A model generated the notes under the pieces. It saw only the letters and a list, made by a program, of their open reading frames with translations. It was not told the origin of the DNA and ran no database searches. From NCBI GenBank assembly GCA_030609365.1, contig JAUWCJ010000008.1, positions 1 through 41,228 on the forward strand: a stretch of 41,228 nucleotides of DNA, in the 5' to 3' direction. Each line of letters opens with the position of its first letter. The first letter of the stretch is position 1. Shown piece after piece: positions 9,038-40,852 of the stretch. Position numbers and translations under genes: made by a program. The DNA comes from Candidatus Eiseniibacteriota bacterium. GTDB taxonomy: Bacteria > Joyebacterota > Joyebacteria > Joyebacterales > Joyebacteraceae.

Positions 9038-11824
9038 TCACAGCCTCAGCCCGAGTGACAGCGAGAGCGATCTGCCCACCGTCTCACGGGTATCGATGGC
9101 GGCGTGGTCTCCGAGAGTCTTGATCTTCTCGGCCTCCAGGAGGTTCTTGCCCGTCAGCTTGATCTCCAGGATGCGGAGCAGCTCCTGCGTCACGGCGATA
9201 TCCAGGAGGTCTCGCGGCTCCTCCCACAGGCTGTCCTCTCTGTCGAGCGTCACCTTGTCCAGCCGTCTTGCGATCTTGTTGTAGAGCAGCGTGACCGAGG
9301 TCCCGGTGTTGCTGTTCTCGTACTTGAGGCCGAAGTTGACCGTCCAGGGAGCCTGGCCCTGCAGCGGGCGGGTCCGAATCTCCCTGCTCGTGTGCCAGAC
9401 GCCCTCGTCGTCCTGCCAGCGCCATTCGTAGAGGTACTCGACCGAAGAGAACGAGCGCGTGTAGTTGCCCGAGACCGTCACGTCGTCGAACCAGTTGCCG
9501 AGGAAGCCGAGCGACTTCCTCGCCTCTATCTCGAACCCATGGTTGTGACCCCAATCGGAGTTGAACCAGGTGCGGATGTGCCTGTAGTCGGAGGACGGTA
9601 TCAGCTTCTCCTCGATGGCGTTCTCTATCTCCTTGTAGAAGTAGCTGACGGCCAGCACCTCTTCAGAACTCGGGAACGCCTCTACTCGAACGTCGAAGTT
9701 CTTGATGACCGAGCGTTTGAGGTCCGGATTACCCTGAACCGTGTTGTCCTCATTGAAGTCCCTGTACTTGATCGCCGCGATCTCCCTGAGTTCGGGACGG
9801 TTGACTGAGACGTAGTGTCCCAACCTCACGTTGCTCCACTCGGTCGGCATGTAGGTCAGGTTGATAGAGGGGAGAACGTCCGTCTTGTCTATCTCCGATA
9901 CTACGGGCTCCTGGTCGCCCTCACGCTGGATGGCCTCGACGTGCTGCTTCGAGTGCTCGACGCGGGCGCCGCCGGCCAGACGGAAGCGATTCCCCGCGAC
10001 CTCGAACGCGTGGTTGACCATCCCGTAGTACGCCTCGACGTCGTGCGTGCCATCGTACTCACCGGTGAACGCGCTCTTGACCCTGAAGGTGAGCTTGCGC
10101 TGGCCGTAGTTCTCCGGTTCGTGTATCTCGTCCACCGGCAGGACGCGGATCCAGTAGTTGGGGCTGCGGACGGTGGATGTGTCCGTCCAGTACGCGTCCG
10201 TGCGGTACGAGCGCTCCCGTTTCTCGATGAAGGCTCCGACCTTGACTTCGGTCGTTCCGAGCGCTCCGAGAGGAAGAGCGAAGTCCGCCCGCCCGCCGCG
10301 ACCATCCTCGTTGAGGTCCGTCCATGACCTGGTGTTCTCACTGAGACTGTGCGTTCCGTCCGCGCGCCGCGCGTAGTCGGCCTGCTTTCTGTCGGGTTCG
10401 TGCGCCTTCGACTCAGAGCCGAACACCTTCCAGTCGAACTTCGGTCCCCTGAGGCGCCTGCCGAGCTCGTGTGTCCCGCCCAGCTGAGCGCTCATCCGCG
10501 AGCGCTCGTCCCATTCAATGTGATAGCTCTTGCCTCCGGGCCCGGAGTTCTCGCTCAGCCAGCCCTCGGCGTACCCCACCTGGTCCCGCGCATCCTGGAT
10601 GTAGAGTCCCCTGGCGGAGAACTGATGGCCCGGCGTCGGGCTGTACGCGAGGTTCAGGAGACCGGACCAGATGACCTCGTACCGGTCCCTCGTGCCCTCG
10701 TAGTTGATGTTCCCGTATCCGGTCTCGTCCACCGGTGACCGCGAGTAATCCACTCTTTCGTAGGACTGGCTGTACTTCGCGCCCGCGAGGACGCCGAGTA
10801 CGTGGCGCCCATCGCTTTGTCCGAAGTCGTACCTGTCACCGTAGGACAGGCTGTACGAACCGTTGGCCGGCGCCTTCTCGCGGTGCGTGACCCACGAGTT
10901 CGTGAGCTTCTGGGCCAGCGCGTTGTGGTTGTTGCCGGTCGGTCGGTCGTAGTCCGGCACCTCTCTCGAACCGTCGTCCATGCCAAGCGCGTCCGTACCG
11001 CCGCCCGTGCTCCTCAGGATGTTGATGCCCGTCGTTCCGTCGTCGTAGCCCGACGCGATGGAGAGAGAGAGGCCGCGTTCGGCCGGTATGTCGCGCGTGT
11101 TCAGTCTGACGAGGCCGCCCGAGAAATCCCCCGGAAGGTCGGGCGATGCCGATTTGACGACGACCGCACTCGAGAGCAGCGAGGAGGGGAGAATGTCGTA
11201 GGTGAAGCTCCTTCGGTCGACGTCGGTGTCTGTGCTGGTGACCGGCACCCCGTCGAGCCACGTGAGGCTGTAGCGGTCGGTCATGCCCCTGACGTACACG
11301 AATTTACTATCGACGATCTGAAGCCCCGTTACTCGTTTCAGTACATCGCTGCCCGAGCCGTCCGGCGACTTCGAGATGCGTTCTGCGCTGATGGCGTCGC
11401 CGATGGTGATCGACTTCATCCGCTCGGTGATGAGCGCGACTTCCGTGGACATCACCCTGTCCGCGCTGACGACGAGGTCCTCGATCGTGAAACTCGCCGA
11501 GGTGCCTCCGCGCCGCGTGAGCTTGATGTTCAGCTTCGTTGACTTCCCGTCCTCTATCAGCACGTTCGAGAGGACCTTCGAATCGTAGCCCTCGAACGAC
11601 GCTCTGACGTCGTAGGTCCCGGGCGGAATGCCGTCGATCCGGTACTCGCCGTCTAGGTCGGTCGTGGCGCCGATGGTCGTGGCAAGAAGGAGCATGTTGG
11701 CTCCCGACAATCGATTGCCGCCGTCCGCCGACGTGATGGTTCCATGGAGGGAACCGGCGGCGAGCGCGAGAGAGGGAACCGCCAGCAGGATTGCGACAAG
11801 AACGGAAGTCCTGGAGCTTTTCAT
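9038..11824 (-). CDS. TonB-dependent outer-membrane receptor with carboxypeptidase-like N-terminal domain
   Basis: 928-residue precursor. It has a signal peptide (1-22), then a CarboxypepD-regulatory-like beta domain (GSLHGTITSADGGNRLSGAN, GEYRIDGIPPGTYDVRASFEGY). A probable TonB box follows at FTIEDLVVSAD, and then the plug (DVLKRVTGLQIV, YVRGMTDRYSLTWLDGVPV, VVVKSASPDLPGDFSGGLVRL) and a 22-strand-type barrel to the end. It imports a ligand using energy from ExbBD-TonB. The ATG at 11824 has GAGG upstream. It is divergent from the ExbB/ExbD/TonB operon, with an 11-bp-periodic operator between them. The ligand is not readable; the neighbourhood suggests phosphate or phosphorylated compounds. 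Confidence 0.88.
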   Translation of the reverse strand: MKSSRTSVLVAILLAVPSLALAAGSLHGTITSADGGNRLSGANMLLLATTIGATTDLDGEYRIDGIPPGTYDVRASFEGYDSKVLSNVLIEDGKSTKLNIKLTRRGGTSASFTIEDLVVSADRVMSTEVALITERMKSITIGDAISAERISKSPDGSGSDVLKRVTGLQIVDSKFVYVRGMTDRYSLTWLDGVPVTSTDTDVDRRSFTYDILPSSLLSSAVVVKSASPDLPGDFSGGLVRLNTRDIPAERGLSLSIASGYDDGTTGINILRSTGGGTDALGMDDGSREVPDYDRPTGNNHNALAQKLTNSWVTHREKAPANGSYSLSYGDRYDFGQSDGRHVLGVLAGAKYSQSYERVDYSRSPVDETGYGNINYEGTRDRYEVIWSGLLNLAYSPTPGHQFSARGLYIQDARDQVGYAEGWLSENSGPGGKSYHIEWDERSRMSAQLGGTHELGRRLRGPKFDWKVFGSESKAHEPDRKQADYARRADGTHSLSENTRSWTDLNEDGRGGRADFALPLGALGTTEVKVGAFIEKRERSYRTDAYWTDTSTVRSPNYWIRVLPVDEIHEPENYGQRKLTFRVKSAFTGEYDGTHDVEAYYGMVNHAFEVAGNRFRLAGGARVEHSKQHVEAIQREGDQEPVVSEIDKTDVLPSINLTYMPTEWSNVRLGHYVSVNRPELREIAAIKYRDFNEDNTVQGNPDLKRSVIKNFDVRVEAFPSSEEVLAVSYFYKEIENAIEEKLIPSSDYRHIRTWFNSDWGHNHGFEIEARKSLGFLGNWFDDVTVSGNYTRSFSSVEYLYEWRWQDDEGVWHTSREIRTRPLQGQAPWTVNFGLKYENSNTGTSVTLLYNKIARRLDKVTLDREDSLWEEPRDLLDIAVTQELLRILEIKLTGKNLLEAEKIKTLGDHAAIDTRETVGRSLSLSLGLRL

Positions 11825-12165: not shown

Positions 12166-12921
12166 ATGAGGAGAACGGCGCTGGTCGCCCTGTTCTTGGC
12201 TCTGGTGGTCGGGCAGCTCCTTGCGCAGTCATCCACGGATGGCGTCAGGGAGACCGTGCAGGGGACGGTCGACATCGACCAGGGAACACAGGAGGAGCGT
12301 GACGCGTGGGCGAGCGAGCAGGCCGGGCTCGAAGCCAGATACCGCACGGCCAAGGCGAACATCGCCTACCTCACCGAGCGCATAGCCGGGGAGCAGAAGG
12401 CCGTCGCGGGACTCACGGAGAGCATAGAGGAGCTCGAGCGCAGGATGTACGAGGCGAAACTCCTCCGGTCGAGTTTGCAGGACACTCTCGACATCGTCAT
12501 GGTCCGGCTTGAGGAGTTCGTCGCGCAGGACCTGCCGTTCCTCACGGAAGAGCGCGGGCGACGACTCGAGGTGCTGCGCAGAGAGCTCGCGCTCCCGGAG
12601 GTCACCGGGGCCGAGAAACTGAGACGCCTGCTCGAGGCGCTGCAGATCGAGACCGAGTACGGCAAGTCGGTGGAAGTGAGCCAGCAGGAGATCGCGCTCG
12701 ACGGCGCGTCCATCTTCGTCGATGTGTTGTGGGTCGGACGCGTCTCGCTCTTCTGGCGGACTCCCGACGGAGACAGGGCAGGGACGTTCGATAGAGAATC
12801 CTGGGAATGGGTTGAACTGCCTCCGAGCTACGGACGCACGATCGGGGACGCGATAGAGATGGCATCGCGCATCCGACCCGTACAGCTCATAAATCTGCCG
12901 CTCGGGAGGGTTCAGCGATGA
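12166..12921 (+). CDS. DUF3450 family periplasmic coiled-coil protein of the TonB operon
   Basis: 251 residues with a signal peptide ending near LLAQ and a long heptad-rich helical region (about 35-165). The C-terminal signature is LWVGRVSLFWRTPDGDRAGTFDRESWEWVELPPSYGRTIGDAI, diagnostic of DUF3450. In Vibrio and Shewanella the same family opens the TonB2-type operon DUF3450-ttpC-exbB-exbD-tonB-TPR, and the order here is identical. It is thought to act in the periplasm with TtpC. Its stop overlaps the next start (ATGA). Confidence 0.85.
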   Translation: MRRTALVALFLALVVGQLLAQSSTDGVRETVQGTVDIDQGTQEERDAWASEQAGLEARYRTAKANIAYLTERIAGEQKAVAGLTESIEELERRMYEAKLLRSSLQDTLDIVMVRLEEFVAQDLPFLTEERGRRLEVLRRELALPEVTGAEKLRRLLEALQIETEYGKSVEVSQQEIALDGASIFVDVLWVGRVSLFWRTPDGDRAGTFDRESWEWVELPPSYGRTIGDAIEMASRIRPVQLINLPLGRVQR

Positions 12922-14441
12922 GGAGACTTACTGGGTCTGCCGCGGCGAAGGTGCTTCCGGCGTTCTTGGTCGCGGCGGTCCTGCTCGTTCTCGTCGTCGC
13001 GCCCGGCGCGCAGGCGCAGGACGTGCGGGATGCGGCTCGCAAAGCTGACGCGGAGAGGCGGGCCGCCCTCGAGCGCGCGCAACAGGCAGAGGACCTCATA
13101 CTGAACGACCGTGAGGCGCTCCTGACTGCTGTGGAGGAGTTCGAGGCGGAGGACGGGGTGCTCGACGCGCGACTCGCCGAGCTCGAGCGTGAGGTCGCGA
13201 ACCTGGAATCCCACAGGGAGCGTCTTGCCGACCGTTGGGCACGACGGGAGCTTGAGTATAGGGAGATATCCGGGAACGTCCGTCTGGCGGCTCGCGATCT
13301 TGCGGCGCTTCTCGAGCAGTCGCCCATGACCGCGCTCAGGCCCGAGCGGCTCGGAAGGGTGCGGAGCATCCTGCGGGAGGGCTACTTCCCCGACATAGAG
13401 GACATTTCCAGCATGGCTGGCGCCCTCTTCGAGGAGATGGAACTGTCGGGCCAGGTCGGCCTGCGCGAGGCGAGCTTCGTGGGGCGGGACGGCAAGGAGC
13501 AGACCGGCCAGGTCATGACCCTCGGCGCCTTCACGGCCGTCTACCGCACGAGCGACGGTGGCGAGGTGGGATTCCTCAGGTACTCGCAGGGAGAGCGCAA
13601 GCTCTTCGCTCTCTCCGCGCTCCCGCCATCGGGCATGGTGCGCACGCTGCGCAGCTACATGGACGGCACGAGTGAATCCGCAACCATCGACATCTCGGGC
13701 GGCGCGGCGCTGCGCCAGATCACACAACAGGTCGGACTCTGGGAGCACCTGCTGCTCGGCGGCCCCATCGTTTATCCGATCCTCGCACTGGGTATCGTCG
13801 CCCTCGTCATAGTCGCCTGCAGGTTCGTCTTCCTGAGACGCGTGCACGGCAACACCGACCGCATCATGGGTCAGGCTTCCGCCCTCGCGTCGAAGGGCGA
13901 CTGGGACGGCTGCGAGGCTATCGTCAGGAAGTACAAGGACAAGAAGATGCCCGTCATCGAGGTCGTGGCCGACGGTCTGTCGGCGCGCCATGAGGACCGC
14001 GCGACTCTCGAGAGCGTCATGCAGGAGGCCATCCTGCGCGAGCTGCCGCGCGTCGAGCGCGGGCTCCCGATGCTCGCGGTCTTCGGGGCCGTTGCGCCGC
14101 TCCTGGGCCTGCTCGGTACCGTCACGGGCATGATCGAGACGTTCCGCGTCATCACGCTCTACGGAACCGGCGACCCCAGGCTCATGTCCAGCGGCATCAG
14201 CGAGGCGCTCGTCACCACAGAGCTGGGCCTGGCCGTCGCCATCCCGATAATGCTCTTCCACACGTTCCTGTCCCGCAGGGCCAACGGCATCATAGGCGAG
14301 ATGGAGGAGAAGGCGGTGCATCTCTCCAACATCATTCTGAAGGAGAAGATCCACGGTCCGAACGGCAGGACGAGGAAGGCGCCGCGCGAGGCGACGGCCG
14401 GAGCGAGCGTGGGCGAGCTTGCCGGGGGGACGGCCGACTGA
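12918..14441 (+). CDS. ttpC: TtpC-like MotA/TolQ/ExbB proton channel family protein with long coiled-coil N-terminus
   Basis: 507 residues: signal or anchor segment 10-34, a charged coiled coil of about 90 residues (36-125), a periplasmic beta-rich part, and a membrane helix near 284-302. The C-terminal MotA/TolQ/ExbB domain has two more helices (AVFGAVAPLLGLLGTVTGMIETF about 390-412, ALVTTELGLAVAIPIMLF about 431-448). This layout, twice ExbB length, is that of TtpC, the extra component of Vibrio-type TonB2 systems. It overlaps the neighbours by 4 and 1 bp. Function by family: energising TonB with the adjacent ExbB/ExbD. Confidence 0.87.
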   Translation: MRRLTGSAAAKVLPAFLVAAVLLVLVVAPGAQAQDVRDAARKADAERRAALERAQQAEDLILNDREALLTAVEEFEAEDGVLDARLAELEREVANLESHRERLADRWARRELEYREISGNVRLAARDLAALLEQSPMTALRPERLGRVRSILREGYFPDIEDISSMAGALFEEMELSGQVGLREASFVGRDGKEQTGQVMTLGAFTAVYRTSDGGEVGFLRYSQGERKLFALSALPPSGMVRTLRSYMDGTSESATIDISGGAALRQITQQVGLWEHLLLGGPIVYPILALGIVALVIVACRFVFLRRVHGNTDRIMGQASALASKGDWDGCEAIVRKYKDKKMPVIEVVADGLSARHEDRATLESVMQEAILRELPRVERGLPMLAVFGAVAPLLGLLGTVTGMIETFRVITLYGTGDPRLMSSGISEALVTTELGLAVAIPIMLFHTFLSRRANGIIGEMEEKAVHLSNIILKEKIHGPNGRTRKAPREATAGASVGELAGGTAD

Positions 14442-15169
14442 TGGAAGCTATCAGCACGACCTTTCATTACCTGAGGCAGGGCGGGTGGATCATGATCCCA
14501 CTGGCCATCGCCTCGATCGTCCTGTGGACACTCATGCTAGAACGCCTGGGTTCCCTCAGGACGCTGAGAAGGCAGGACCTCACGATCGACGACGCGATAC
14601 GAGGGGTCCGTATCGGGGTGGAGCTGGTCGAGGGCGAGGGGCTGCGCGCCCGGCTCGTACGGAGCTTCCTCGCCAGGCGCTCGGGGTTCGCCGCGCTGGA
14701 TGTCGACGTCCTCAGGCAGTGTGCCTTGAGAGAGCAGCCCGGCCTGAGCAGATTCCTTGCCATGATCGGCGTGCTGGTCGCCGTCGCTCCGCTTCTCGGG
14801 CTCCTCGGAACTGTCCTCGGGATGATTGAGACGTTCCAGGTCATTTCCGTCTTCGGAACCGGCAACGCCAGCGCGATGGCGAGCGGGATATCCATAGCTC
14901 TCATCACGACAGAGGCCGGGCTTCTGATCGCGGTGCCCGGACTCCTCTTGAGCGGGGTTCTCATGCAGCAGTCCGCGCGGCTTCGGACGCAGCTTGAGGA
15001 GGACCTCACGATTCTGACGCGCATCGTGCGCCGTTCGAACCACTCGAACCGCGCGGCGCCGGACGAGAGGAAGTACGGCGACGCCTGCAACGGACCGACG
15101 GGGAGCGACGCGGCCGCGACGACGGCATCTGTTCCAGCTATGGCCTGTTCGGAGGGCAGCAGCGGATGA
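14441..15169 (+). CDS. exbB: ExbB-type proton channel subunit
   Basis: 242 residues with three membrane helices (about 15-33, 105-130, 149-170). The MotA/TolQ/ExbB core reads APLLGLLGTVLGMIETFQVISVFG, then GISIALITTEAGLLIAVPGLLL. With ExbD it forms the proton channel that powers TonB. The conserved Thr in the last helix (ITTEAG) is the pore-lining position in this family. The ATG overlaps the preceding TGA (TGATG) and its own stop overlaps exbD (ATGA), so the operon is translationally coupled. The C-terminal 35 residues are an unusual polar tail. Confidence 0.9.
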   Translation: MEAISTTFHYLRQGGWIMIPLAIASIVLWTLMLERLGSLRTLRRQDLTIDDAIRGVRIGVELVEGEGLRARLVRSFLARRSGFAALDVDVLRQCALREQPGLSRFLAMIGVLVAVAPLLGLLGTVLGMIETFQVISVFGTGNASAMASGISIALITTEAGLLIAVPGLLLSGVLMQQSARLRTQLEEDLTILTRIVRRSNHSNRAAPDERKYGDACNGPTGSDAAATTASVPAMACSEGSSG

Positions 15170-15585
15170 TAAGCGTAAGAGGTACGATTCGGGGTGGGGG
15201 AGGCAAGGTGGAAATCCCACTGGGTCCACTCATTGATATGGTCTTCCTGCTGCTCATCTTCTTCGCCGTAACGACGAGCTTCGTGAAGGAAGCGGGGATC
15301 GACGTGCAGCGGGCGACGGCATCGACGGCGGAAGTCAAGGAGCACGCGGGGATCATGATCGGCGTGACGCCGGAGGGCGACGCGTACTTCGAGGGCGCGC
15401 GCATCGACATCAGAAGCGTGCGTGCGCACGTTGAGCGGGCGCTGGCGGAAGACCCCGAGAGCGGCGTCGTCATAGTCGCGGACAAGCGCAGCGAGACGGG
15501 CGCCATCGTGACCGTCATGGATCAGTGCCGGTTGGCGGGCGCCAAGACCGTGAGCCTCGCCGCCAAGCGCGAGGAAGAGCCTTGA
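15166..15585 (+). CDS. exbD: ExbD-type biopolymer transport protein
   Basis: 139 residues with a short cytoplasmic N-terminus, one membrane helix (about 20-40) carrying the essential proton-binding Asp in PLIDMVFLLLIFF, and a periplasmic ExbD domain (VTPEGDAYFEGARIDIRSVR, then VVIVADKRSETG). The length is normal for ExbD/TolR. It overlaps exbB by 4 bp, and its own stop is overlapped by the TTG of tonB. Confidence 0.92.
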   Translation: MISVRGTIRGGGGKVEIPLGPLIDMVFLLLIFFAVTTSFVKEAGIDVQRATASTAEVKEHAGIMIGVTPEGDAYFEGARIDIRSVRAHVERALAEDPESGVVIVADKRSETGAIVTVMDQCRLAGAKTVSLAAKREEEP

Positions 15586-16208
15586 CGAGAACAGCACGCT
15601 TCCCGCTCTGGGTCTTCGCAGTGGCCGTCGGGGTCAACGTCCTGCTGTTCGCATTCGCCGCGCTGCTGCTTCAGGAGCGCCGCGTTCCCCAGGACATGAC
15701 GAATCCCATCGGCGTGAGCCTCGTCAAGCTCGAGGCTCCCTCCATGCCCGAGCAGCAGGAGGTCAGCAAGGCCGAGAAGCCCAAGCCCCGGCAGAAGATG
15801 GACTTCACACCCGATGTGATCCGCCCGCAGCTCGGTGGACCCGGGCAGATGGATCTCGGCGTCGCCATTAATCTGGGTGGAGCGGAGGGCATCAGCGGCA
15901 CACGCGAGTTCGTGTTCGAGGCCTACGAGCTGGACCAGGCGCCCGCCCCCATCGTGCGCGTCCCTCCCGTCTACCCCTACGGTGCGCGGGAGAGAGGTAT
16001 CGAGGGGGCGGTTCAGGTGCGGATGCTGGTCACGATCGAGGGGACCGTCGGCGACGTGGAGATCCTTGATGCCCGCCCCCAGGGCATCTTCGAGGAGGTC
16101 GTGAGAAGAACGGTCCCGCAGTGGAAGTTCTCGCCCGGCAAGATACAGGGCAAGGCCGTCACGGCGTGGGTCACGACGACCATACACTTCAACCTGAGTT
16201 CCGGATGA
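15582..16208 (+). CDS. tonB: TonB energy-transducing protein (TonB2 type)
   Basis: 208 residues. It has an N-terminal membrane anchor (LWVFAVAVGVNVLLFAFAALLL), a short linker with only a brief Lys/Pro stretch (KAEKPKPRQ) instead of the long Pro-rich spacer of classical TonB, and a C-terminal TonB domain (PVYPYGARERGIEGAVQVRMLVTIEGTVGDVEIL, then VPQWKFSPGKIQGKAVTAWV). The start is TTG 15582, overlapping the exbD stop and preceded by AGGAAGAG. An in-frame ATG at 15525 lies inside exbD and would put a charged segment before the anchor. Short TonBs are typical of TtpC-containing systems. Confidence 0.88.
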   Translation: MTRTARFPLWVFAVAVGVNVLLFAFAALLLQERRVPQDMTNPIGVSLVKLEAPSMPEQQEVSKAEKPKPRQKMDFTPDVIRPQLGGPGQMDLGVAINLGGAEGISGTREFVFEAYELDQAPAPIVRVPPVYPYGARERGIEGAVQVRMLVTIEGTVGDVEILDARPQGIFEEVVRRTVPQWKFSPGKIQGKAVTAWVTTTIHFNLSSG

Positions 16209-19710: not shown

Positions 19711-20008
19711 CTCAGCGTCCCCCAACGGAACCCGCGGTACCCGGTAGAGTGGCGCAGCAGCACCACGAACATTGCTGATGCCTCGCTCAGTTGTTCATAG
19801 CACGAACATTCTGCACTATATGCATACCATGTGCCAATATTGGACTCTCGTGCGGTTCAGCTAGCGGGCACGCACAGGGCCCCGCGAGCGGTACAGCGGC
19901 ACCTGAGGTAGGCGCCGTTGCGAACTGCGCGACCCGCCTTGCCGGGCGGGGATCCACTGGCTATGGTTGCCGCGTAGCCAGCGGACCCCCACAAGGAGCA
20001 GGTTTCCG
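19711..20008. other. Divergent intergenic region with a 10-bp direct repeat
   Basis: 298 bp between the divergent kinase and PNGase F-like genes. CACGAACATT occurs twice, at 19764-19773 and 19801-19810, 37 bp apart. An AT-richer stretch (19795-19840) is the likely promoter zone. AAGGAG at 19993-19998 serves the plus-strand gene. Confidence 0.4.
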
Positions 20009-22732
20009 ATGAGCCGGCGATTCTCCCTCTGGACAGCTCTCCGTTTCCTCCTCTGTGGACTGATGACGTGCGGGGCCTGCGGCCCGGCTGCGGCAGCGGC
20101 CGGCGACGCGCTGGCCGTCCGCACGTTCACGTTCGACGACATCGAGATGCGCCGCGCCACCTTCGGCTTCCCGGACGACGGCCGCACCTCGGAGCGGATC
20201 CTCATGCGCTACACACTCAAGTGCGACGAGGCGACGGTGGGCGACCCGTATCCCTGCGGCGAGTGGGACGTGACCACGCACGTGACCGCGCACGTCCACA
20301 CGGGCGTGATGGATTCACTGCTCCGGACACACCCGTACTTCATCGTGGAAGGGAAGTCCCCGCCCGAGCTCCGCTACACCGCGAGGCCCACCTTCCACCG
20401 ATTCACTCACTGGGAGGACCCCGACGGACCCCGCCCGGGCGACCACTACATGCGATTCAGTGGCACCGACCGCATAACCGTCCCGCCGTCGGCCGTGGCC
20501 ACCGTGGACTCGAGCCTGACCATCGAGTTCTGGGCGAAGGGCGCAGCCTCTCAGCCAAGGAACGACCACATCGTGGAGGCGGGGGAGACTGGTGGCCGCG
20601 TGATCAACATCCACCTGCCGTGGGGCACTGGTACCGTCTATTGGGACGCGGGCGGCCGGCTCTCGGGCGCCAACAACCGGTTGAGCAAACAAGCCGAGCC
20701 GGGAGAGTACAAGGGCCGGTGGAATCACTGGGCCTTCACCAAGGACACGAGCTCGGGCGAGATGTGCATCTACCTGAACGGCGAGCTCTGGCACGAGGCG
20801 GGGACCATGAAGAAGGATATGCCTGCGATCGACAGCTTCGTCATCGGCGCGAACCTTCACGGGAGCGGCGGTTGGTACGAGGGCGGTCTGGACGACTTTC
20901 GCGTCTGGGACGTCGCCCTGGACGAGGAGACGGTCCGAGCGTGGCGGAGTAGTGCCGTCGGAACGGACCATCCCTTCCTGGAGCACCTGCTTCTGGAGTA
21001 CCGATTCGACAACGAGGACGTCGGCGGTAGCCGTATTCTGGACAGCTCGCCCCGCGGCAACCACGGTGAACGCTTCGGCCAGCCGCAGCGCGTACCCTTC
21101 GGGCTCATTGGGCGAGCCGATATCAGGCCGGGGCCGCGAGCGACACTCCGAACCCACAGCATCCCTGCCCCGCGGCTCAGCGTGCAGATATTCGGGGACG
21201 AGGCAACGCCCGAGAGCGTCACGCAGGTGATGGACGTGTGGTTCGCGCACGACTCGTGGTTCGACGGCGACGGGAACTGGCTCAGGGACACGCCCGTCAA
21301 GGACGCTGTGGTGCTCGAGCAGTACGAGCACAACTGGTACGGCGCGCCCTTCGAGGTTGTGGAGAGATTCGAGCTGGCCCGGTTCATCACGCCGTACGGG
21401 TTGAGACTGGACCTGGGAGAGAACGGGTTCACCTGGGTCTACGATGTCACGGACTACGCGCCGCTCCTGCGTGGGAGCGTGGACCTTCAGGCAGGCAACA
21501 CGTTCGAGCTCCTGGACCTCGAGTTCGTGTTTGTGGAGGGCACGCCACCGCGTGACGTGCTCGACATCCGCAACCTCTGGCCGCTCGCGGACTACGGATA
21601 TCGCGAGCTCGCCGACAACGAAGCGCTTGAGCCGGTCGAGATCACGCTCGGCCCGGACGCCTCGGGCTTCTGCGTGCGCTCCTGCATCTCGGGCCACGGC
21701 CACGCCGGCCCGGACAACTGCTGCGAGTGGGATGCCAAGGAGCACACGCTCTCGATCGACGGGCAGGAGCGATTCCACTGGACGGTCTGGCGCGACTGTG
21801 GCATGAACCCGGTGCACCCGCAGGGGGGGACGTGGCAGTTCGACCGCGCGGGGTGGTGCCCCGGCACGTTCGTGGATGTCTACGAGCACGAGCTGACGCC
21901 GTGGGTTCGTCCAGGCGAGGACGTGGTGCTGGACTACGGCATCGAGCCGCACGACCCGGAGAACGGAGAAGCCGACGGACGCTTCGTCGTGTCGCACCAG
22001 CTCTTCAGCTACGGACCGCCGAGTTTCAAACTGGACGCGGCGCTCGAGGACGTCCTCGCCCCATCCTCGCACGGTGAGCATAAGCGTCTGAACCCCGTTT
22101 CGGGGGAGGTCATCGTGCGCGTCCGGAACATGGGCTCTGTCTCGCTGACCGGGCTCACGATCCACTACGGGCTGGAGGGTGGGCTCGAGAGCAGCTTCGA
22201 CTGGAAGGGTGAGCTCGCCTTCCTCGAGAGCGAGACCGTCACGCTTCCGGCGCCCGACTGGACAGGCATGGGTGGGGGCTCTCGCTTCTTCTCGGAGGTC
22301 GAGCGCCCGAACGGCGGCAGAGACGAGCATGCGTCCAACGATCGTGTCGTCGTCACCGTCGCCGCGCCACACGTTCTCCCGCCCGAGTTCCTGGTTCACA
22401 TCGAGGTTCCCGGTTTCGGGCGAGCAGCGGACAACAGCTACACCGTCACCGACCGCGATGGACGAATCGTCGCCGGGCGCGACAGCTTCGCCGATGAGGC
22501 GACGTACCGTGACAGCATCCAGCTTCCACCCGGCGCGTACACGTTTGAGTTCCTGGACAGCAAAGAAGACGGACTCATACGGCACTGGTGGCTCAGGGCC
22601 TCCGCGCCCGACAGCATCGGAGAGAACGGCGCGCTCAAGATTCTGGACTGCGAGAGCGAGCTCCTGATGGATCTGGGCTACGACTTCGCCGAGAAGAGGA
22701 CACTGCGTTTCTTCGTGGGAGACCCACGGTAA
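20009..22732 (+). CDS. Secreted PNGase F-like peptide-N-glycosidase with inserted LamG domain
   Basis: 907 residues. It has a signal peptide (about 1-31), then an N-terminal PNGase F piece with PYPCGEWDVTTHV, whose Asp87 aligns with catalytic Asp60 of Elizabethkingia PNGase F. A LamG/concanavalin-like domain (about 145-312: SSLTIEFWAKG, WNHWAFTKD, YEGGLDDFRVWDVAL) is inserted. PNGase F then resumes: FELARFITPYG (Glu455, like Glu118), SGHGHAGPDNCCEWD (Glu573, like Glu206) and FDRAGWCPGTFVDVYEH. The remainder has CARDB-like beta domains. PNGase F cleaves the Asn-GlcNAc bond of N-glycans. All three acidic residues are kept, so activity is plausible. The ATG at 20009 follows AAGGAG. Confidence 0.88.
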   Translation: MSRRFSLWTALRFLLCGLMTCGACGPAAAAAGDALAVRTFTFDDIEMRRATFGFPDDGRTSERILMRYTLKCDEATVGDPYPCGEWDVTTHVTAHVHTGVMDSLLRTHPYFIVEGKSPPELRYTARPTFHRFTHWEDPDGPRPGDHYMRFSGTDRITVPPSAVATVDSSLTIEFWAKGAASQPRNDHIVEAGETGGRVINIHLPWGTGTVYWDAGGRLSGANNRLSKQAEPGEYKGRWNHWAFTKDTSSGEMCIYLNGELWHEAGTMKKDMPAIDSFVIGANLHGSGGWYEGGLDDFRVWDVALDEETVRAWRSSAVGTDHPFLEHLLLEYRFDNEDVGGSRILDSSPRGNHGERFGQPQRVPFGLIGRADIRPGPRATLRTHSIPAPRLSVQIFGDEATPESVTQVMDVWFAHDSWFDGDGNWLRDTPVKDAVVLEQYEHNWYGAPFEVVERFELARFITPYGLRLDLGENGFTWVYDVTDYAPLLRGSVDLQAGNTFELLDLEFVFVEGTPPRDVLDIRNLWPLADYGYRELADNEALEPVEITLGPDASGFCVRSCISGHGHAGPDNCCEWDAKEHTLSIDGQERFHWTVWRDCGMNPVHPQGGTWQFDRAGWCPGTFVDVYEHELTPWVRPGEDVVLDYGIEPHDPENGEADGRFVVSHQLFSYGPPSFKLDAALEDVLAPSSHGEHKRLNPVSGEVIVRVRNMGSVSLTGLTIHYGLEGGLESSFDWKGELAFLESETVTLPAPDWTGMGGGSRFFSEVERPNGGRDEHASNDRVVVTVAAPHVLPPEFLVHIEVPGFGRAADNSYTVTDRDGRIVAGRDSFADEATYRDSIQLPPGAYTFEFLDSKEDGLIRHWWLRASAPDSIGENGALKILDCESELLMDLGYDFAEKRTLRFFVGDPR

Positions 22733-22811: not shown

Positions 22812-23294
22812 TCACTCTGCGATCGTGATGGCCTTGGCGCTCTCCCACAGGCCGTGGATGTTGCAGTAGGCCGCGGCGTAGAACACACCAGGAACCCCCG
22901 TCCGGACATCGATGGACACCTTGGGGTCCGTGTAAAGCGTGCTGGTGTCGGTTCCGAGAACCGACTCCCCGTGAGCGCTGAACTCGAAGCTCGCGACCTC
23001 GTAGGGCAGGGTTGAATCGGCTGGAATGAAATAGAGGCGGATCCAGCGGATGTGGTGCGCCGCCGTGTTCGGGTGCTCCGTCTCCTTGCCGATCGTGACG
23101 GTGACGGTCGTCGGCTCACCGGCCTTGAACTCGACCGGGCAGTCGATGACCGGGACGTGCTTCTCGCTGCGCCAGTCCCCGGTCCTGTATAGGGACGCGA
23201 TACCGGCCGACGCGTCCGAGCTACCGATGGGTGCTACGGCCGCAACGATAGCAACCACCATCAGAGCCACGATGTAACGGGAGCTTCTCAGCAT
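22812..23294 (-). CDS. Exported superoxide reductase (1Fe type, neelaredoxin-like)
   Basis: 160 residues. After an N-terminal hydrophobic signal peptide (about 7-30) the protein follows the one-iron superoxide reductases along its whole length: SLYRTGDWRSEKHVPVIDCP, TEHPNTAAHHIRWIRLYFIP, FSAHGES, YCNIHGLWES. The iron ligands are His46, His74, His80, Cys144 and His147, and the catalytic Glu44-Lys45 pair is present. It reduces superoxide to hydrogen peroxide with an external electron donor. There is no rubredoxin-like N-domain. The ATG at 23294 has GGAGGAGG 8 nt upstream. Most family members are cytoplasmic, so the signal peptide is notable; a periplasmic location is inferred. Confidence 0.92.
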   Translation of the reverse strand: MLRSSRYIVALMVVAIVAAVAPIGSSDASAGIASLYRTGDWRSEKHVPVIDCPVEFKAGEPTTVTVTIGKETEHPNTAAHHIRWIRLYFIPADSTLPYEVASFEFSAHGESVLGTDTSTLYTDPKVSIDVRTGVPGVFYAAAYCNIHGLWESAKAITIAE

Positions 23295-28326: not shown

Positions 28327-30624
28327 CTACCCGCGCCTGCCGCCGCCCGACGGCCGCGAGCGTGAGGGAGAGGGCGAGCGTGTGGGCGCAGGCTTGGGAG
28401 AAGGTTTGCTCGATTTCGCCTGACTCGTGCGCTGAGTGCCGCGGTCTCTAGACTTCTTGTCGCGGTCCAGACTCTTCGAAGGCTGCTGCTTCGGCGCCGA
28501 CCATCCGCCCTTCTTGTCGCGCTGCTGCCAGTCGTTGCCCTGCTTGCGGTAGACCTTCCCGTCCTTGCCGGCGTACACATCGTTGGGCCTGCTCGCCGGT
28601 ACCGGCTTCTTGGTCCGGGTCGGCCTGTTCCCCTGCACCGGCTTCGTGGCTGGGGTCGACACCGCCGGCCGACTTGCAGGAGACACCGGCCCCGTGGTTG
28701 GGGTCGACACTCCCGGCCGGCTCACAGGAGACGCCGGTCTTGTCGTCGGTGTTCCGGCCATCCGGTCTGCGCCGGTGTGCCTGATGCCCTTGTCGCGGGA
28801 CTTATAGAGGTTCCGTCCTCCGTAGGGTGCCGGTCCGGGTGGCCTGCGTCCTGGTCTGTTGCCCGGTCTGTATCCGGGTCCGTATCCCGGGTGGTAGCCG
28901 TGATAGTACCCGCGGTGATACCCGTGGCGGTACCCGTAGCGGTAGCCCACCGGACCCCACCATCCGCCCCAGTATGGCCTTCCGTAGCTCACATGAAGCC
29001 ACCCGTAGCTGACGCCGACCGAGAATCCCCAGCCGGTGTAGGGGTTCCAGTGCACCCCGTACCCGTAGGTCACGGGTCTGGGATAGTAGTACGTGCCGTA
29101 CCACGGCTGGTACCAGTATCCCGTGCCGTACACCACGCAACCGTGATAGACGTGCCAGCCGCCGTAGCCAGGCAGGTAGCCCACATAGACGACGTCGGGC
29201 GTCGATTCGTAGATGTACACGTACTTGACGTTCTGAACGGGGCAGTCTGCAGGGATGTCCTGTATCGCATCGGGCACCGATGTTGCGACCTCCCACGGTC
29301 CCTCCGGCCAGCGAGAGACGAACCAGATGGCTTCGTCACAGCAGTAGTAGGTGCCATCGACAAGCAGCACCGACTTGCTCGTGTTGATGGCGTAGGCAAC
29401 ATTGTCCGCGCACCTCTCGAACTGAGGGTCACCGTCATACTCGACCGTGACGGTCGCGGTCCTGCGGTCGACCTCCGCCGTCTGCGGGATCGAGGTCCCG
29501 AGCACCGCCTCCCTGGCCTCCTGCGTGCCGGCCACGCTCGCGCGCACGTTGGCGACCTCCGAGCCCGTGGGTATCTGGGCGAAGCTCTCGGGAACCTCGT
29601 CGGGAGGCACGTGCGTCCAGGTACTTCCCGTCATGGCATCGGACGCGTACCAGCGTCCCGCCACGAGCAGGTAGTACTGCTGCGTAACGATGTCCATGAT
29701 GACATCGCTCTCGGTGTTCCGAATGTAGAGGAGGTCCGTTCCCTCGACCGACGCGAACTCCGGCTCGCCATTGATCTGGATGAGCTCGGCCGGCTTCGTT
29801 CGCACCAGTATCTTCGGGGCAGGCTGCTCTCCCTCATCATCCTCCGGAGCCGCCTCCCGGCCCTGCTCCGCCTCCTGTTCCTCCTTCGCTATCTCCCTGG
29901 CGACGTCCGCCACCTTCCCTGGCAGGTTCTCCGCAACTGCCCAGTCAGCCGTCAGGTCCGGAGCGACGTACCAATGGTCGCCGCCCTTAAGAAAGTAACG
30001 CCCCGTCCCCGGGTCCTGAAGGATGTAGAACGGGCTGTTCGCCACGTACTTGAGCCCCTCGTGGTCCAGGTCGGCGAGTATCGGATCGCCGTCTATCATC
30101 ACGAGAACGGTGGGGGAGGTGACCACGATCAGCTCGGGGGCGTCATGGTTGAGGTCACCCTCCTCCCGCCCCACGCCCTCGACGTTTTCCAGCCCCGCCA
30201 GCAGGCGGTCCATCGACACGACCATCTCCCATTTCGGAATCTCTTCCTCGAGGTAATCGGTGAGTGCCTGAACGTCCTCATCTGCGGCTGATGGGAACTG
30301 CGCCGTCGTCACCTTCACGGACTCCAGGGACACCATCCGAGTGTCCATGTCGGTGACCACACGCGCCTCGAGCCACACGGCGCCGAAGACTGGTTCGCTC
30401 TCGCCTTTTGCTGTGACCGACACGGCGGCCCTGGCCTCCAGCTTGTCGCCGGAATAGCTCTCGATCTGCGGCTGGTACATGATTATCTGGCCCCTCTCGC
30501 CATCCAGCTGACGGGGCCACGAGACTGCGTTCTCTTCGTCTTGACCAAGCGAGGCCGCGGGCCAGAGGAGACACATCAGCAGGGCGAGAGTGCTGACAAG
30601 GCGAATTCTGTGCTTGAGTTCCAT
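28327..30624 (-). CDS. Exported protein with repeated WYA-type domains and Gly/Tyr-rich tail
   Basis: 765 residues with a signal peptide ending near ASLG-Q. The middle holds four similar units: AELIQINGEPEFASVEGTDLLYIRNTESDVIMD, then QQYYLLVAGRWYASDAMTGSTWTHVP; and YDGDPQFERCADNVAYAINTSKSVLLVDGTYY, then WFVSRWPEGPWEVATSVP. These match a widespread proteobacterial family often labelled carbohydrate-binding V/XII, whose function is unproven. They are followed by a Gly/Tyr/His-rich stretch (about 520-610) and a basic Pro/Ser/Thr/Arg tail with repeats (STPTTGPVSPASRP). The ATG at 30624 has GGAGG upstream. The 20-bp repeats at 30645-30704 precede it. Confidence 0.72.
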   Translation of the reverse strand: MELKHRIRLVSTLALLMCLLWPAASLGQDEENAVSWPRQLDGERGQIIMYQPQIESYSGDKLEARAAVSVTAKGESEPVFGAVWLEARVVTDMDTRMVSLESVKVTTAQFPSAADEDVQALTDYLEEEIPKWEMVVSMDRLLAGLENVEGVGREEGDLNHDAPELIVVTSPTVLVMIDGDPILADLDHEGLKYVANSPFYILQDPGTGRYFLKGGDHWYVAPDLTADWAVAENLPGKVADVAREIAKEEQEAEQGREAAPEDDEGEQPAPKILVRTKPAELIQINGEPEFASVEGTDLLYIRNTESDVIMDIVTQQYYLLVAGRWYASDAMTGSTWTHVPPDEVPESFAQIPTGSEVANVRASVAGTQEAREAVLGTSIPQTAEVDRRTATVTVEYDGDPQFERCADNVAYAINTSKSVLLVDGTYYCCDEAIWFVSRWPEGPWEVATSVPDAIQDIPADCPVQNVKYVYIYESTPDVVYVGYLPGYGGWHVYHGCVVYGTGYWYQPWYGTYYYPRPVTYGYGVHWNPYTGWGFSVGVSYGWLHVSYGRPYWGGWWGPVGYRYGYRHGYHRGYYHGYHPGYGPGYRPGNRPGRRPPGPAPYGGRNLYKSRDKGIRHTGADRMAGTPTTRPASPVSRPGVSTPTTGPVSPASRPAVSTPATKPVQGNRPTRTKKPVPASRPNDVYAGKDGKVYRKQGNDWQQRDKKGGWSAPKQQPSKSLDRDKKSRDRGTQRTSQAKSSKPSPKPAPTRSPSPSRSRPSGGGRRG

Positions 30625-30911
30625 TTCGTCCTCCGATCGTGCCGGCGTTTGTTCCAATGTACGAGTGCTTGTTCCATTGTATGGGCGTTTGTTCCAACGC
30701 TCGTTTGACGTGTGCCCGACCTGCTCCATTCAGCAACCAGGCCGGATGCGCCCCAGGGCATTCAATAGCACGTTTCAACCCTCGATAATAGGGCCCCTCC
30801 GACGGACGGTCAATTCATACCTGGGCGGTGCGTGGGGCGCGAGACACGGCGACATTCGCCCTGAAGGACTGACGCAAGCTGAGCTGGGGAGCGAATAACG
30901 GGACGGGGTGA
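30625..30911. other. Upstream region of the WYA-repeat protein
   Basis: 287 bp with no credible gene. It contains the ribosome site (30630-30635) and the 20-bp repeat array at 30645-30704. The part from about 30870 belongs to the repeated terminator module. Confidence 0.45.
30645..30704 (-). repeat. Three 20-bp tandem repeats (GTTCCA core) in the promoter region
   Basis: GTTCCA recurs at 30651, 30671 and 30691, exactly 20 bp apart, each preceded by G[CT]G[CT]TT or similar. On the gene strand the unit reads TGGAACAARC. Spacing of two helical turns, 20-80 bp before the start at 30624, suggests operator sites for a regulator. Confidence 0.65.
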
Positions 30912-38463: not shown

Positions 38464-38587
38464 ACAACAAGTTCAATAACACGGTGCCCTATTGCCGCCG
38501 CTCGAGCTGGCGCTCGCGGCGACCCGTGTATCTATGGGCTGCGTGTGTCGACACAGAATCCCGAGAGGTGGGGCAGGAGACTGGATT

Positions 38588-40852
38588 GTGAAGAGGGTAG
38601 GAGTGGCGCTGCTACTTGTCGTGCTCGCATCCGCGGTGCTTGCCGCGGCGCCGGCGCGTGGCGTCGGCGCCATCGAAGGAGCGGTCACAGACAAGTACAC
38701 GCACCAGCCCCTCTTCGCCGCCGATGTCGTAGTCGTCGGCACGACGCTCGGTGGGATCACAGATCGGGACGGCAGGTTCGCGATCGGCGACGTGCCGGCC
38801 GGGAGCTACCGGGTCACGGTCTCGATGATGGGATACGAGGTTACGGCCGTGGACGACGTCGAGGTTCAGGACGGTCCCGCCACGACAATGCAGCTCGAAC
38901 TCTGCCCACGGGTCCTGGACATTGGCCTGGATGTGCTCGTCGAGGCGAGTCACTTCCGCCGGGACAGTGAGAAACCGACGAGCTTCAGGACTCTGACCCC
39001 CCAGGAGATGCGCTACTCTCCGGGCGCGATGGAAGACGTCTTCCGCGTGCTTCAGTCCATGCCGGGCGTCAGTCCCGCGGATATGACGAACTCTAATCTG
39101 ATAGTCCGCGGCGGTGACCCCAGCGAGAACCGCACGCTGTTCGAGAACATCGAGATACCTCGGGCGCTGCACTTCGGCCGTCCCGGGGGAACGATAGGCG
39201 GGATCAGCATCGTCAGTCCGAGCCTGCTCGAGAGGGTCGACTTCCTTACCGGCGGGTTCCCGGCGAGGTACGGCGACAAGGTGTCCTCGGTCTTCGAGAT
39301 GAAGCTGCGGGACGGCAGCAGCACGGACTACAGCACCAACATCAACTTCAACATGGGTGGATTCAGCCTCGCGGCGGACGGTCCCATGCCCGGAGGCGGG
39401 ACGATGCTCCTCTCAGCGCGAAGAGGGGTCTTCGACCTGCTGACATCGACGATGGGCGTCCCCGCGCTCCCCTCGTACTGGGACGTAGTGGGTAAGGTGA
39501 CGTACGACCTCGGCAGCTCGAACAGGCTCTCCCTCGTCGGCTTCTACTTCCCCGATGACCTTGAGATCGCGGCTGACCCCGAAGAGGAGAACAGGCATGG
39601 GATGTGGCCCGGTCTCGATCTGGAGCGCAGGGACCACGGCAGGGCCGTGGGTCTGAACTGGCGCTGTCTCCAGGGCGAACGCGGCTACGTCCTGACGACG
39701 GCCTCGCACGTGAGCAACAGCTGGACGACAAGCCGCGGTACGGAGCAGGAGCCCGGTCTCGTCGGTGACGCGATCCGGGAGGAGGAGTTCCAGCTGAAGA
39801 GCGAGCTGAACCGCAAGCTCTCGGATCGAGTGAACGTGAGATTCGGGGTCTTCGCCCGGCAGATCCACTCGGAGCAGAACACGTGGAGCGTCTCGGACAC
39901 GATGGCCTCAGGCGAGGTCATTCCGAGCTACCGGGTGACGTACAACCCTGACCCGACCTACAAGGCCGGCTCCTACCTGCAGGCCACGGTCAGGCCCTTC
40001 AGTCGCGTTTCACTGACATCCGGGCTGCGCTACGACTACTATGACTTCACCGGCGAGTCGAAGCTGAGTCCCAGGCTTGGTGTGGCCCTGTCGCTGACCG
40101 ACCGGACCACTCTCAACGCGGCGTACGGGCACTACTACCAGACAGCGGCCCCGTGGCAGGTCGCTTCGCACCCGTCCAATACGACACTTCGCAGCAGCGG
40201 CTCGGTTCACTACGTCGCCGGCCTGAAGCATCTGCTGTCCGGGAACACGCAGGTCAGCGTAGAGGCGTATCACAAGGAACTGAGCGACGTGTTCGTTCAC
40301 AGCTACACCTCGAGGATCACGACGAACGAGGGAAGTGGCTATGCCCGAGGCGTGGAGTTGTGCGTCCAGCGCAAGATGAGCAAAGGACTGGTCGGAAGCG
40401 TGGCTTACACCTACTCGGTCTCCGTGAGGAGAGACGGAGCGTCCCTGCCGGAGTACTACTCGGAGTTCGACCGCCCCCACAATCTCACTCTCGTAGGAAG
40501 CTTCGCGCCGACCGACAAGTGGCGCGTGGGGGCGAAGTTCCTCTACGCGACCGGGAGCCCGTACACGCCGATCATAGGCTCCGAGCAGGTGGACGGTGAG
40601 TGGTACGCCGTGAGCGGTCCGAAGAACTCCGCGCGCTATCCCGACTACCACATGCTCGACGTTCGCATCGACCGCTCCTTCCAGTTCGCGAACTGGAAGC
40701 TGATGGCGTATCTGGATCTGTGGAATATCTACGGCTACCAGAACGTGACGCTGTACAACTACTCGATCGATGAGAACGGCACGGTCACCCGGACGGTTCC
40801 CGATGAGGCGCCTCGCATGCTCCCGATCCTGGGGCTGGAGGCGAGGTTCTAG
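38588..40852 (+). CDS. TonB-dependent receptor with carboxypeptidase-like N-terminal domain
   Basis: 754 residues with a signal peptide and a CarboxypepD-regulatory-like domain (GAIEGAVTDKYTHQPLFAADV, then GRFAIGDVPAGSYRVTVSMMGYE). The plug has EDVFRVLQSMPGVSP, NLIVRGGDPSENRTLFENIEIPRALHF and ERVDFLTGGFPARYGDKVSSVFEMKLRDG. A beta-barrel closes with LGLEARF, the terminal Phe being the BAM signal. The GTG at 38588 follows AGGAG with 8-nt spacing; the frame opening at 38492 overlaps the leader. No obvious partner genes, so the ligand is unknown. It shares domain order with the receptor at 9038-11824 but is shorter and only distantly similar. Confidence 0.88.
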   Translation: MKRVGVALLLVVLASAVLAAAPARGVGAIEGAVTDKYTHQPLFAADVVVVGTTLGGITDRDGRFAIGDVPAGSYRVTVSMMGYEVTAVDDVEVQDGPATTMQLELCPRVLDIGLDVLVEASHFRRDSEKPTSFRTLTPQEMRYSPGAMEDVFRVLQSMPGVSPADMTNSNLIVRGGDPSENRTLFENIEIPRALHFGRPGGTIGGISIVSPSLLERVDFLTGGFPARYGDKVSSVFEMKLRDGSSTDYSTNINFNMGGFSLAADGPMPGGGTMLLSARRGVFDLLTSTMGVPALPSYWDVVGKVTYDLGSSNRLSLVGFYFPDDLEIAADPEEENRHGMWPGLDLERRDHGRAVGLNWRCLQGERGYVLTTASHVSNSWTTSRGTEQEPGLVGDAIREEEFQLKSELNRKLSDRVNVRFGVFARQIHSEQNTWSVSDTMASGEVIPSYRVTYNPDPTYKAGSYLQATVRPFSRVSLTSGLRYDYYDFTGESKLSPRLGVALSLTDRTTLNAAYGHYYQTAAPWQVASHPSNTTLRSSGSVHYVAGLKHLLSGNTQVSVEAYHKELSDVFVHSYTSRITTNEGSGYARGVELCVQRKMSKGLVGSVAYTYSVSVRRDGASLPEYYSEFDRPHNLTLVGSFAPTDKWRVGAKFLYATGSPYTPIIGSEQVDGEWYAVSGPKNSARYPDYHMLDVRIDRSFQFANWKLMAYLDLWNIYGYQNVTLYNYSIDENGTVTRTVPDEAPRMLPILGLEARF

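What the first reader, a model, noticed from the sequence alone, without database searches (positions are those of the whole stretch)
20009..22732. PNGase F homologue split by a LamG domain, all catalytic acids retained
A LamG-like domain of about 170 residues sits between the segment with the Asp60 equivalent (Asp87) and the segment with the Glu118 and Glu206 equivalents (Glu455, Glu573). Bacterial N-glycan amidases are few. An insertion that could bind glycan beside the active site, plus C-terminal beta domains, would be a new architecture for removing N-glycans from eukaryotic or archaeal glycoproteins.
Basis: partly seen in the sequence, partly recalled or inferred. Interest (0 to 1): 0.68.

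Follow-up and report, generated by a model that had tools for sequence, protein, structure and literature searches.

The report
PNGase F relative with nested LamG
This bacterial gene encodes a probably secreted enzyme of the family that cuts sugar chains (N-glycans) off proteins; a LamG (lectin-type) domain is spliced into a hairpin of the catalytic fold, a layout shared by many related bacteria but not described in the papers I could search.

Summary
The ORF at 20009-22732 (+, 907 aa) is real and is a PNGase F-superfamily protein. A family profile matches PNGase F at E 4.5e-33. A natural relative without the insert, 49% identical over the main block, folds onto the whole of PNGase F (TM 0.72). 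Compared with that relative, the window protein carries residues 100-448 as an insertion at the tip of one beta-hairpin; it contains a LamG domain (Pfam 1.2e-16). Two catalytic acids are invariant among relatives: Asp87 (=Asp60) and Glu573 (=Glu206). The Glu118 position is Thr498 and varies; an invariant Glu500 two residues on is the better candidate. His563 replaces Trp191, as in most other studied PNGases. The architecture is not unique: about 70 of 78 aligned sequences carry the LamG, most with a further module, and 8 lack it. The insertion hairpin lies at the far end of the Asp87 strand, so "beside the active site" is unsupported. Most likely a secreted PNGase with a nested accessory lectin-like module: a new variant of a known kind. 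Activity and ligand are untested.

The parts
19993..19998 (+). AAGGAG ribosome-binding site, 10 nt before the ATG
   Evidence: sequence read; supports ATG 20009 over the longer TTG 19967 frame start
20009..20101 (+). signal-peptide-like N terminus (residues 1-31: RR, hydrophobic stretch, AAAAA-G)
   Evidence: sequence; pLDDT below 50 for residues 1-27; inference, no signal-peptide predictor was run
20102..20305 (+). PNGase core, first segment (residues 32-99)
   Evidence: BLASTP 57% to insert-less relative L041; CGEWD aligns with CDEWD of PNGase F
20267..20269 (+). Asp87 = PNGase F Asp60
   Evidence: D in 73/73
20306..21352 (+). insertion, residues 100-448 (349 aa), at a beta-hairpin tip
   Evidence: absent from L041, where residues 74 and 75 are contiguous; strands 89-102 and 448-460 flank it
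20441..21124 (+). LamG / pentraxin-like domain within the insertion (residues about 145-372; Pfam match 151-309)
   Evidence: Laminin_G_3 E 1.2e-16; pentraxin folds in the PDB search, TM up to 0.72 by target length
21353..22009 (+). PNGase core, second segment (residues 449-667)
   Evidence: N-glycanase_C 532-665 E 8.3e-15; profile E 4.5e-33 to PNGase F
21371..21373 (+).
   Evidence: E 64, Q 14
21506..21508 (+). Glu500, invariant acid in the hairpin that carries Glu118/Trp120 in PNGase F; candidate functional substitute
   Evidence: E in 78/78; exact structural equivalence not measured
21695..21697 (+). His563 at the PNGase F Trp191 position
   Evidence: H in 78/78
21725..21727 (+). Glu573 = PNGase F Glu206
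   Evidence: E in 78/78
22010..22378 (+). C-terminal beta domain 1 (residues 668-790)
   Evidence: strands at pLDDT over 90 in the model; no Pfam match
22379..22729 (+). C-terminal beta domain 2 (residues 791-907)
   Evidence: model; shared by insert-less relatives

Best explanation
A secreted PNGase of the PNGase F superfamily that hydrolyses the bond between Asn and the first GlcNAc of N-glycoproteins or glycopeptides, with Asp87 and Glu573 as the essential acids and His563, Arg613 and Trp616 conserved around them. A LamG-bearing module is inserted into the hairpin after the Asp87 strand; it and the two C-terminal beta domains probably hold or orient the substrate, or tether the enzyme, without taking part in catalysis. 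Shown here: homology, fold (through the insert-less relative and the model), conservation of the two acids, insertion boundaries and distribution. Inferred: activity, substrate, Glu500 as stand-in for Glu118, LamG ligand binding and secretion.
For: Profile E 4.5e-33 to PNGase F and 1e-10 to the zebrafish acid PNGase Ngly2. Insert-less relative L041: model matches 1pnf at E 1.9e-19, TM 0.72-0.73 by target length, with the other PNGases of known structure next. Asp60, Glu206, Trp59, Arg248 and Trp251 equivalents are invariant. Mutating the Asp60 and Glu206 equivalents abolishes Ngly2 activity (PMC12753239). An aromatic-Asp motif and a His+Glu pair are common to characterised PNGases (PMC12381499), and both are here. 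The LamG residues W175, R197, N200, H202, P204, G215 and H240 are invariant in 69 sequences. L041, without the insert, is 49% identical in the main block, so the insert is a discrete addition or loss.
Against: No activity data. The Glu118 column is not acidic. The third position of the aromatic-Asp-aromatic/positive motif is Val88 in the window clade (Tyr in 62 of 73). The genome has no GH92, GH20 or GH130 hit and only a short GH38 match, so it lacks an obvious route to use released glycans. No glycan-degradation cluster around the gene.
Confidence: 0.68

Rival explanations
1. A PNGase-fold protein that has lost amidase activity and serves as a glycan- or protein-binding surface or adhesion protein, with LamG and beta domains as the working parts.
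For: Glu118 column variable, Val88 at the Arg61 position; several binding-type domains; no N-glycan pathway found in the genome.
Against: Asp60, Glu206, Arg248, Trp251 and Trp59 equivalents are invariant in relatives across several phyla; a binding-only role would not be expected to keep them. Characterised PNGases lacking Glu118 are active (PMC9522356).
Confidence: 0.15
2. An active amidase whose natural target is not the common eukaryotic N-glycan but another Asn-linked sugar, such as one on archaeal or bacterial surface glycoproteins.
For: No GH92/GH20/GH130 in the genome; active-site differences from PNGase F at Arg61, Glu118 and Trp191.
Against: Own genome has no STT3-type oligosaccharyltransferase match, so it is not likely to trim its own N-glycans; His at the Trp191 position is the common state in PNGases that act on eukaryotic glycans (PMC12381499).
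Confidence: 0.12
3. The LamG insertion is an assembly or prediction artefact joining two genes.
For: None.
Against: Same insertion at the same point in about 70 sequences from independent assemblies, one open frame, no stops.
Confidence: 0.01

Closest known systems
PNGase F (Elizabethkingia meningoseptica; 1pgs, 1pnf, 3pms)
   Same: Double jelly-roll core; Trp59, Asp60, Glu206, Arg248, Trp251 and Cys51/56, 231/252 equivalents
   Different: No insertion (16 residues between Asp60 and Glu77 against 367); Glu118 and Trp191 present there, not here; 314 aa without accessory domains
Zebrafish Ngly2 acid PNGase (9lwg; PMC12753239)
   Same: Asp421/Glu555 equivalents, His in the GHG motif at the Trp191 position; profile E 1e-10
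   Different: Accessory PA and thioredoxin-like domains N-terminal to, not inside, the catalytic domain
PNGaseF-II and Bacteroides group 2 PNGase (4r4z, 7zgn; PMC9522356)
   Same: Fold; Glu118 position not acidic (Gly there)
   Different: N-terminal bowl-like domain, no LamG; another Glu (Glu418 in PNGaseF-II) suggested as the substitute
PNGaseDo and PNGaseL (PMC12381499)
   Same: Bacteroidota PNGaseF-superfamily enzymes with accessory beta modules, shown active
   Different: Accessory modules described as N- or C-terminal to the catalytic module, none as inserted in it; T9SS tails there, none in the window protein
Laminin_G_3 / pentraxin domains (PF13385; 4dqa, 3flp, PTX3)
   Same: Sequence and fold match of the insert
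   Different: Here nested in an enzyme's beta-hairpin; ligand unknown

Membership tests
PNGase F superfamily (PF09112 + PF09113) | N-glycanase_C match above curated cut-off | tested here: met
   55.2 bits against 25
PNGase F superfamily (PF09112 + PF09113) | N-glycanase_N match above curated cut-off | tested here: inconclusive
   12.2 of 22.4 bits, residues 451-491 only; the domain is split by the insert, and the N-terminal segment aligns with PNGase F in the profile search at only 11.7 bits
PNGase F superfamily (PF09112 + PF09113) | Double jelly-roll fold over the whole length | tested here: met
   Insert-less relative L041: 322 columns on 1pnf, TM 0.72; window model itself aligns over 240-248 columns, consistent with the part after the insert
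PNGase F superfamily (PF09112 + PF09113) | Asp60 and Glu206 | tested here: met
   D87 73/73, E573 78/78
PNGase F superfamily (PF09112 + PF09113) | Glu118 (type I PNGase F only) | tested here: not met
   Thr498, variable; invariant Glu500 nearby. Not present in type II enzymes, which are active (PMC9522356)
PNGase F superfamily (PF09112 + PF09113) | Release of N-glycans | not testable with these tools
   needs an enzyme assay
LamG (PF13385) | Profile match and ConA-like fold | tested here: met
   61.6 bits against 27.6; pentraxin/LamG fold hits
LamG (PF13385) | Carbohydrate or Ca2+ binding | not testable with these tools
   strongly conserved motif residues only
T9SS-secreted protein | C-terminal sorting tail | tested here: not met
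   No tail in the window protein, although its genome has 45 Por_Secre_tail matches and the four Bacteroidota/Ignavibacteriota relatives scanned have one

The most novel reading that the evidence does not exclude
The nested LamG is a working part of the catalytic cycle: it folds over the cleft and selects or feeds glycoproteins, in a PNGase subfamily that has replaced Glu118 by Glu500 and so attacks N-glycans (for instance core-fucosylated, algal or archaeal ones) that PNGase F cannot.
Probability: 0.15. Interest if true: 0.6.

Novelty: new variant of a known kind. Interest (0 to 1): 0.4.

Why it matters
PNGases are standard tools for N-glycan analysis, and characterised subfamilies differ in their tolerance for core fucose and folded protein. 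This uncharacterised subfamily spans several FCB phyla and comes in three natural forms (no insert, LamG, extra module plus LamG) with otherwise similar cores. That gives a ready-made comparison to learn what a domain nested in a PNGase does.

Tried and rejected
Glu455 as Glu118: rejected by alignment and by Gln in 14 relatives. Fusion or assembly artefact: rejected. Glycan-utilisation locus: neighbours are a histidine kinase, a TonB/ExbB set, a desulfoferrodoxin-like protein, a PMT_2/TPR protein and a sulfatase, and no neighbour is shared with distant relatives. Own N-glycosylation: no STT3. Reading the residue that replaces Glu118 from PNGaseF-II: phmmer alignments start after that hairpin. 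Measuring the cleft: model coordinates are not released. Rooting the architecture tree on PNGase F: branch too long (4.98) to say whether the insert was gained or lost. Literature searches found no paper on the LamG-inserted form, but the library holds open-licence papers only. Whether PNGaseDo of PMC12381499 belongs to the insert-less branch (two of its members come from the same family, Prolixibacteraceae, by recalled taxonomy of Draconibacterium) could not be checked, as its sequence was not at hand.

Full report
What is there. The window lies in a 2.78 Mb draft genome whose closest named public relatives are labelled Candidatus Eisenbacteria (90% identical protein, L002) and Candidatus Krumholzibacteriia (64%, L005). 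ORF 20009-22732 (+) encodes 907 aa behind a good ribosome-binding site. Pfam gives Laminin_G_3 and N-glycanase_C above cut-off; N-glycanase_N is below it.

Is it PNGase F-like? A single-sequence search finds PNGase F at E 2e-14; a profile of 60 relatives finds it at 4.5e-33 and zebrafish acid PNGase at 1e-10. The AlphaFold2 model of the window protein is confident locally (pLDDT 88.6, pTM 0.66) and its best PDB match is PNGase F, over 240 columns, consistent with the part after the insert. To test the whole core without editing the protein I used a natural relative that lacks the insert, L041 (Cloacimonadota, 528 aa). Its model (pLDDT 90.4, pTM 0.89) aligns over 322 columns with the 314-residue PNGase F, TM 0.72-0.73 by target length, and the other PNGase structures follow.

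The insertion. BLASTP of L041 against the window protein gives two blocks, 12-74 to 37-99 (57%) and 75-527 to 449-903 (49%). Residues 100-448 of the window are therefore one 349-residue insertion between residues that are neighbours in L041. In both models this point is the tip of the hairpin between the strand following the catalytic Asp (89-102 here, 64-73 in L041) and the next strand (448-460, 76-86). Spacing from Asp87 to Glu455 is 367 residues here, 18 in the short relatives and 16 in PNGase F. The insertion holds the LamG (about 145-372) and flanking beta stretches that evolve faster (for example 31% and 36% identity against 55% for LamG and 63-65% for the core in L006).

Active site. 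Across the 78 aligned sequences (window included; fragments left out where they have no residue), the Trp59, Asp60, Glu206, Arg248 and Trp251 equivalents are invariant. Arg61 is Tyr (62), Val (9, the window clade) or Thr (2). Trp191 is His in all. The Glu118 column holds Trp, Gln, Thr, Gly, Phe, Asn or Asp. Glu500, two columns on, is invariant. Glu455 aligns with Glu77 and is Gln in 14. The local alignment around Glu500 is ambiguous because this hairpin is five residues shorter than in PNGase F: MAFFT puts Glu500 on Trp120, HMMER near Arg125. Published work fits loss of Glu118 without loss of activity: type II enzymes have Gly there, with Glu418 proposed as substitute (PMC9522356); six further PNGases share an aromatic-Asp-positive/aromatic motif and a His+Glu pair, PNGase F being the exception with Trp for His (PMC12381499). 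Ngly2 loses all activity when the Asp60 or Glu206 equivalents are changed (PMC12753239).

Distribution. One scan gave 299 relatives, of which 78 loci were kept. Among 65 rows used for a tree besides PNGase F: 13 with LamG, 44 with LamG plus about 150 further residues, 8 without; three changes of form suffice on the tree, but the direction is unknown because the outgroup branch is very long. LamG forms occur in Eiseniibacteriota, Krumholzibacteriota, Delongbacteria, Calditrichota, Gemmatimonadota and a few Bacteroidota; the longer form in Bacteroidota, Chlorobiota and Ignavibacteriota, with a T9SS-type tail in the four scanned. In the window's own phylum 10 of 20 genomes have a match, some of them fragments.

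Position of the LamG (inference). Asp60 sits at the start of its strand and the insertion hairpin at its other end; the strand after Asp87 runs to residue 102 in the model. By topology the LamG leaves the core away from the Asp87 end. This argues against 'beside the active site' but does not exclude that so large a module folds back; I could not measure it.

Context. One PNGase gene in the genome; no GH92, GH20 or GH130, a short GH38 match, no STT3. The gene stands alone, as most of the PNGase genes studied in PMC12381499 do. The most likely role is removal of N-glycans from detrital or neighbouring-cell glycoproteins outside the cytoplasm, perhaps to expose protein rather than to eat the sugar; that is inference.

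Verdict. It is a new variant of a known kind, widespread rather than singular, interest 0.4.

Noticed in passing
L016:4098-6677: A Bacteroidales relative without LamG carries an Exo_endo_phos (endonuclease/exonuclease/phosphatase) domain at its N terminus in the same frame.
   Followed up: partly
L023, L018, L045, L048: Bacteroidota/Ignavibacteriota relatives carry about 150 further residues between the Asp87 strand and the LamG, with no Pfam match; identity unknown.
   Followed up: no
L081, L082: Genomes of the same family as the window's also encode a small PNGase F-like protein resembling the Bacteroides group 1 type (SGHCTDGRDDDEF), matching PF09113 at E 3e-32 and 1.5e-27.
   Followed up: partly
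window 12166-16208: DUF3450, two MotA/ExbB proteins (one fused to DUF3450) and a TonB protein in a row: an energy-transducing set, with TonB-dependent receptor genes at 9038-11824 and 38492-40852.
   Followed up: no
window 22812-23294 (-): Desulfoferrodoxin-domain protein (E 5.8e-29) with a signal-peptide-like N terminus, just downstream on the other strand.
   Followed up: no
window 28327-30729 (-): 800-aa ORF with no Pfam match.
   Followed up: no
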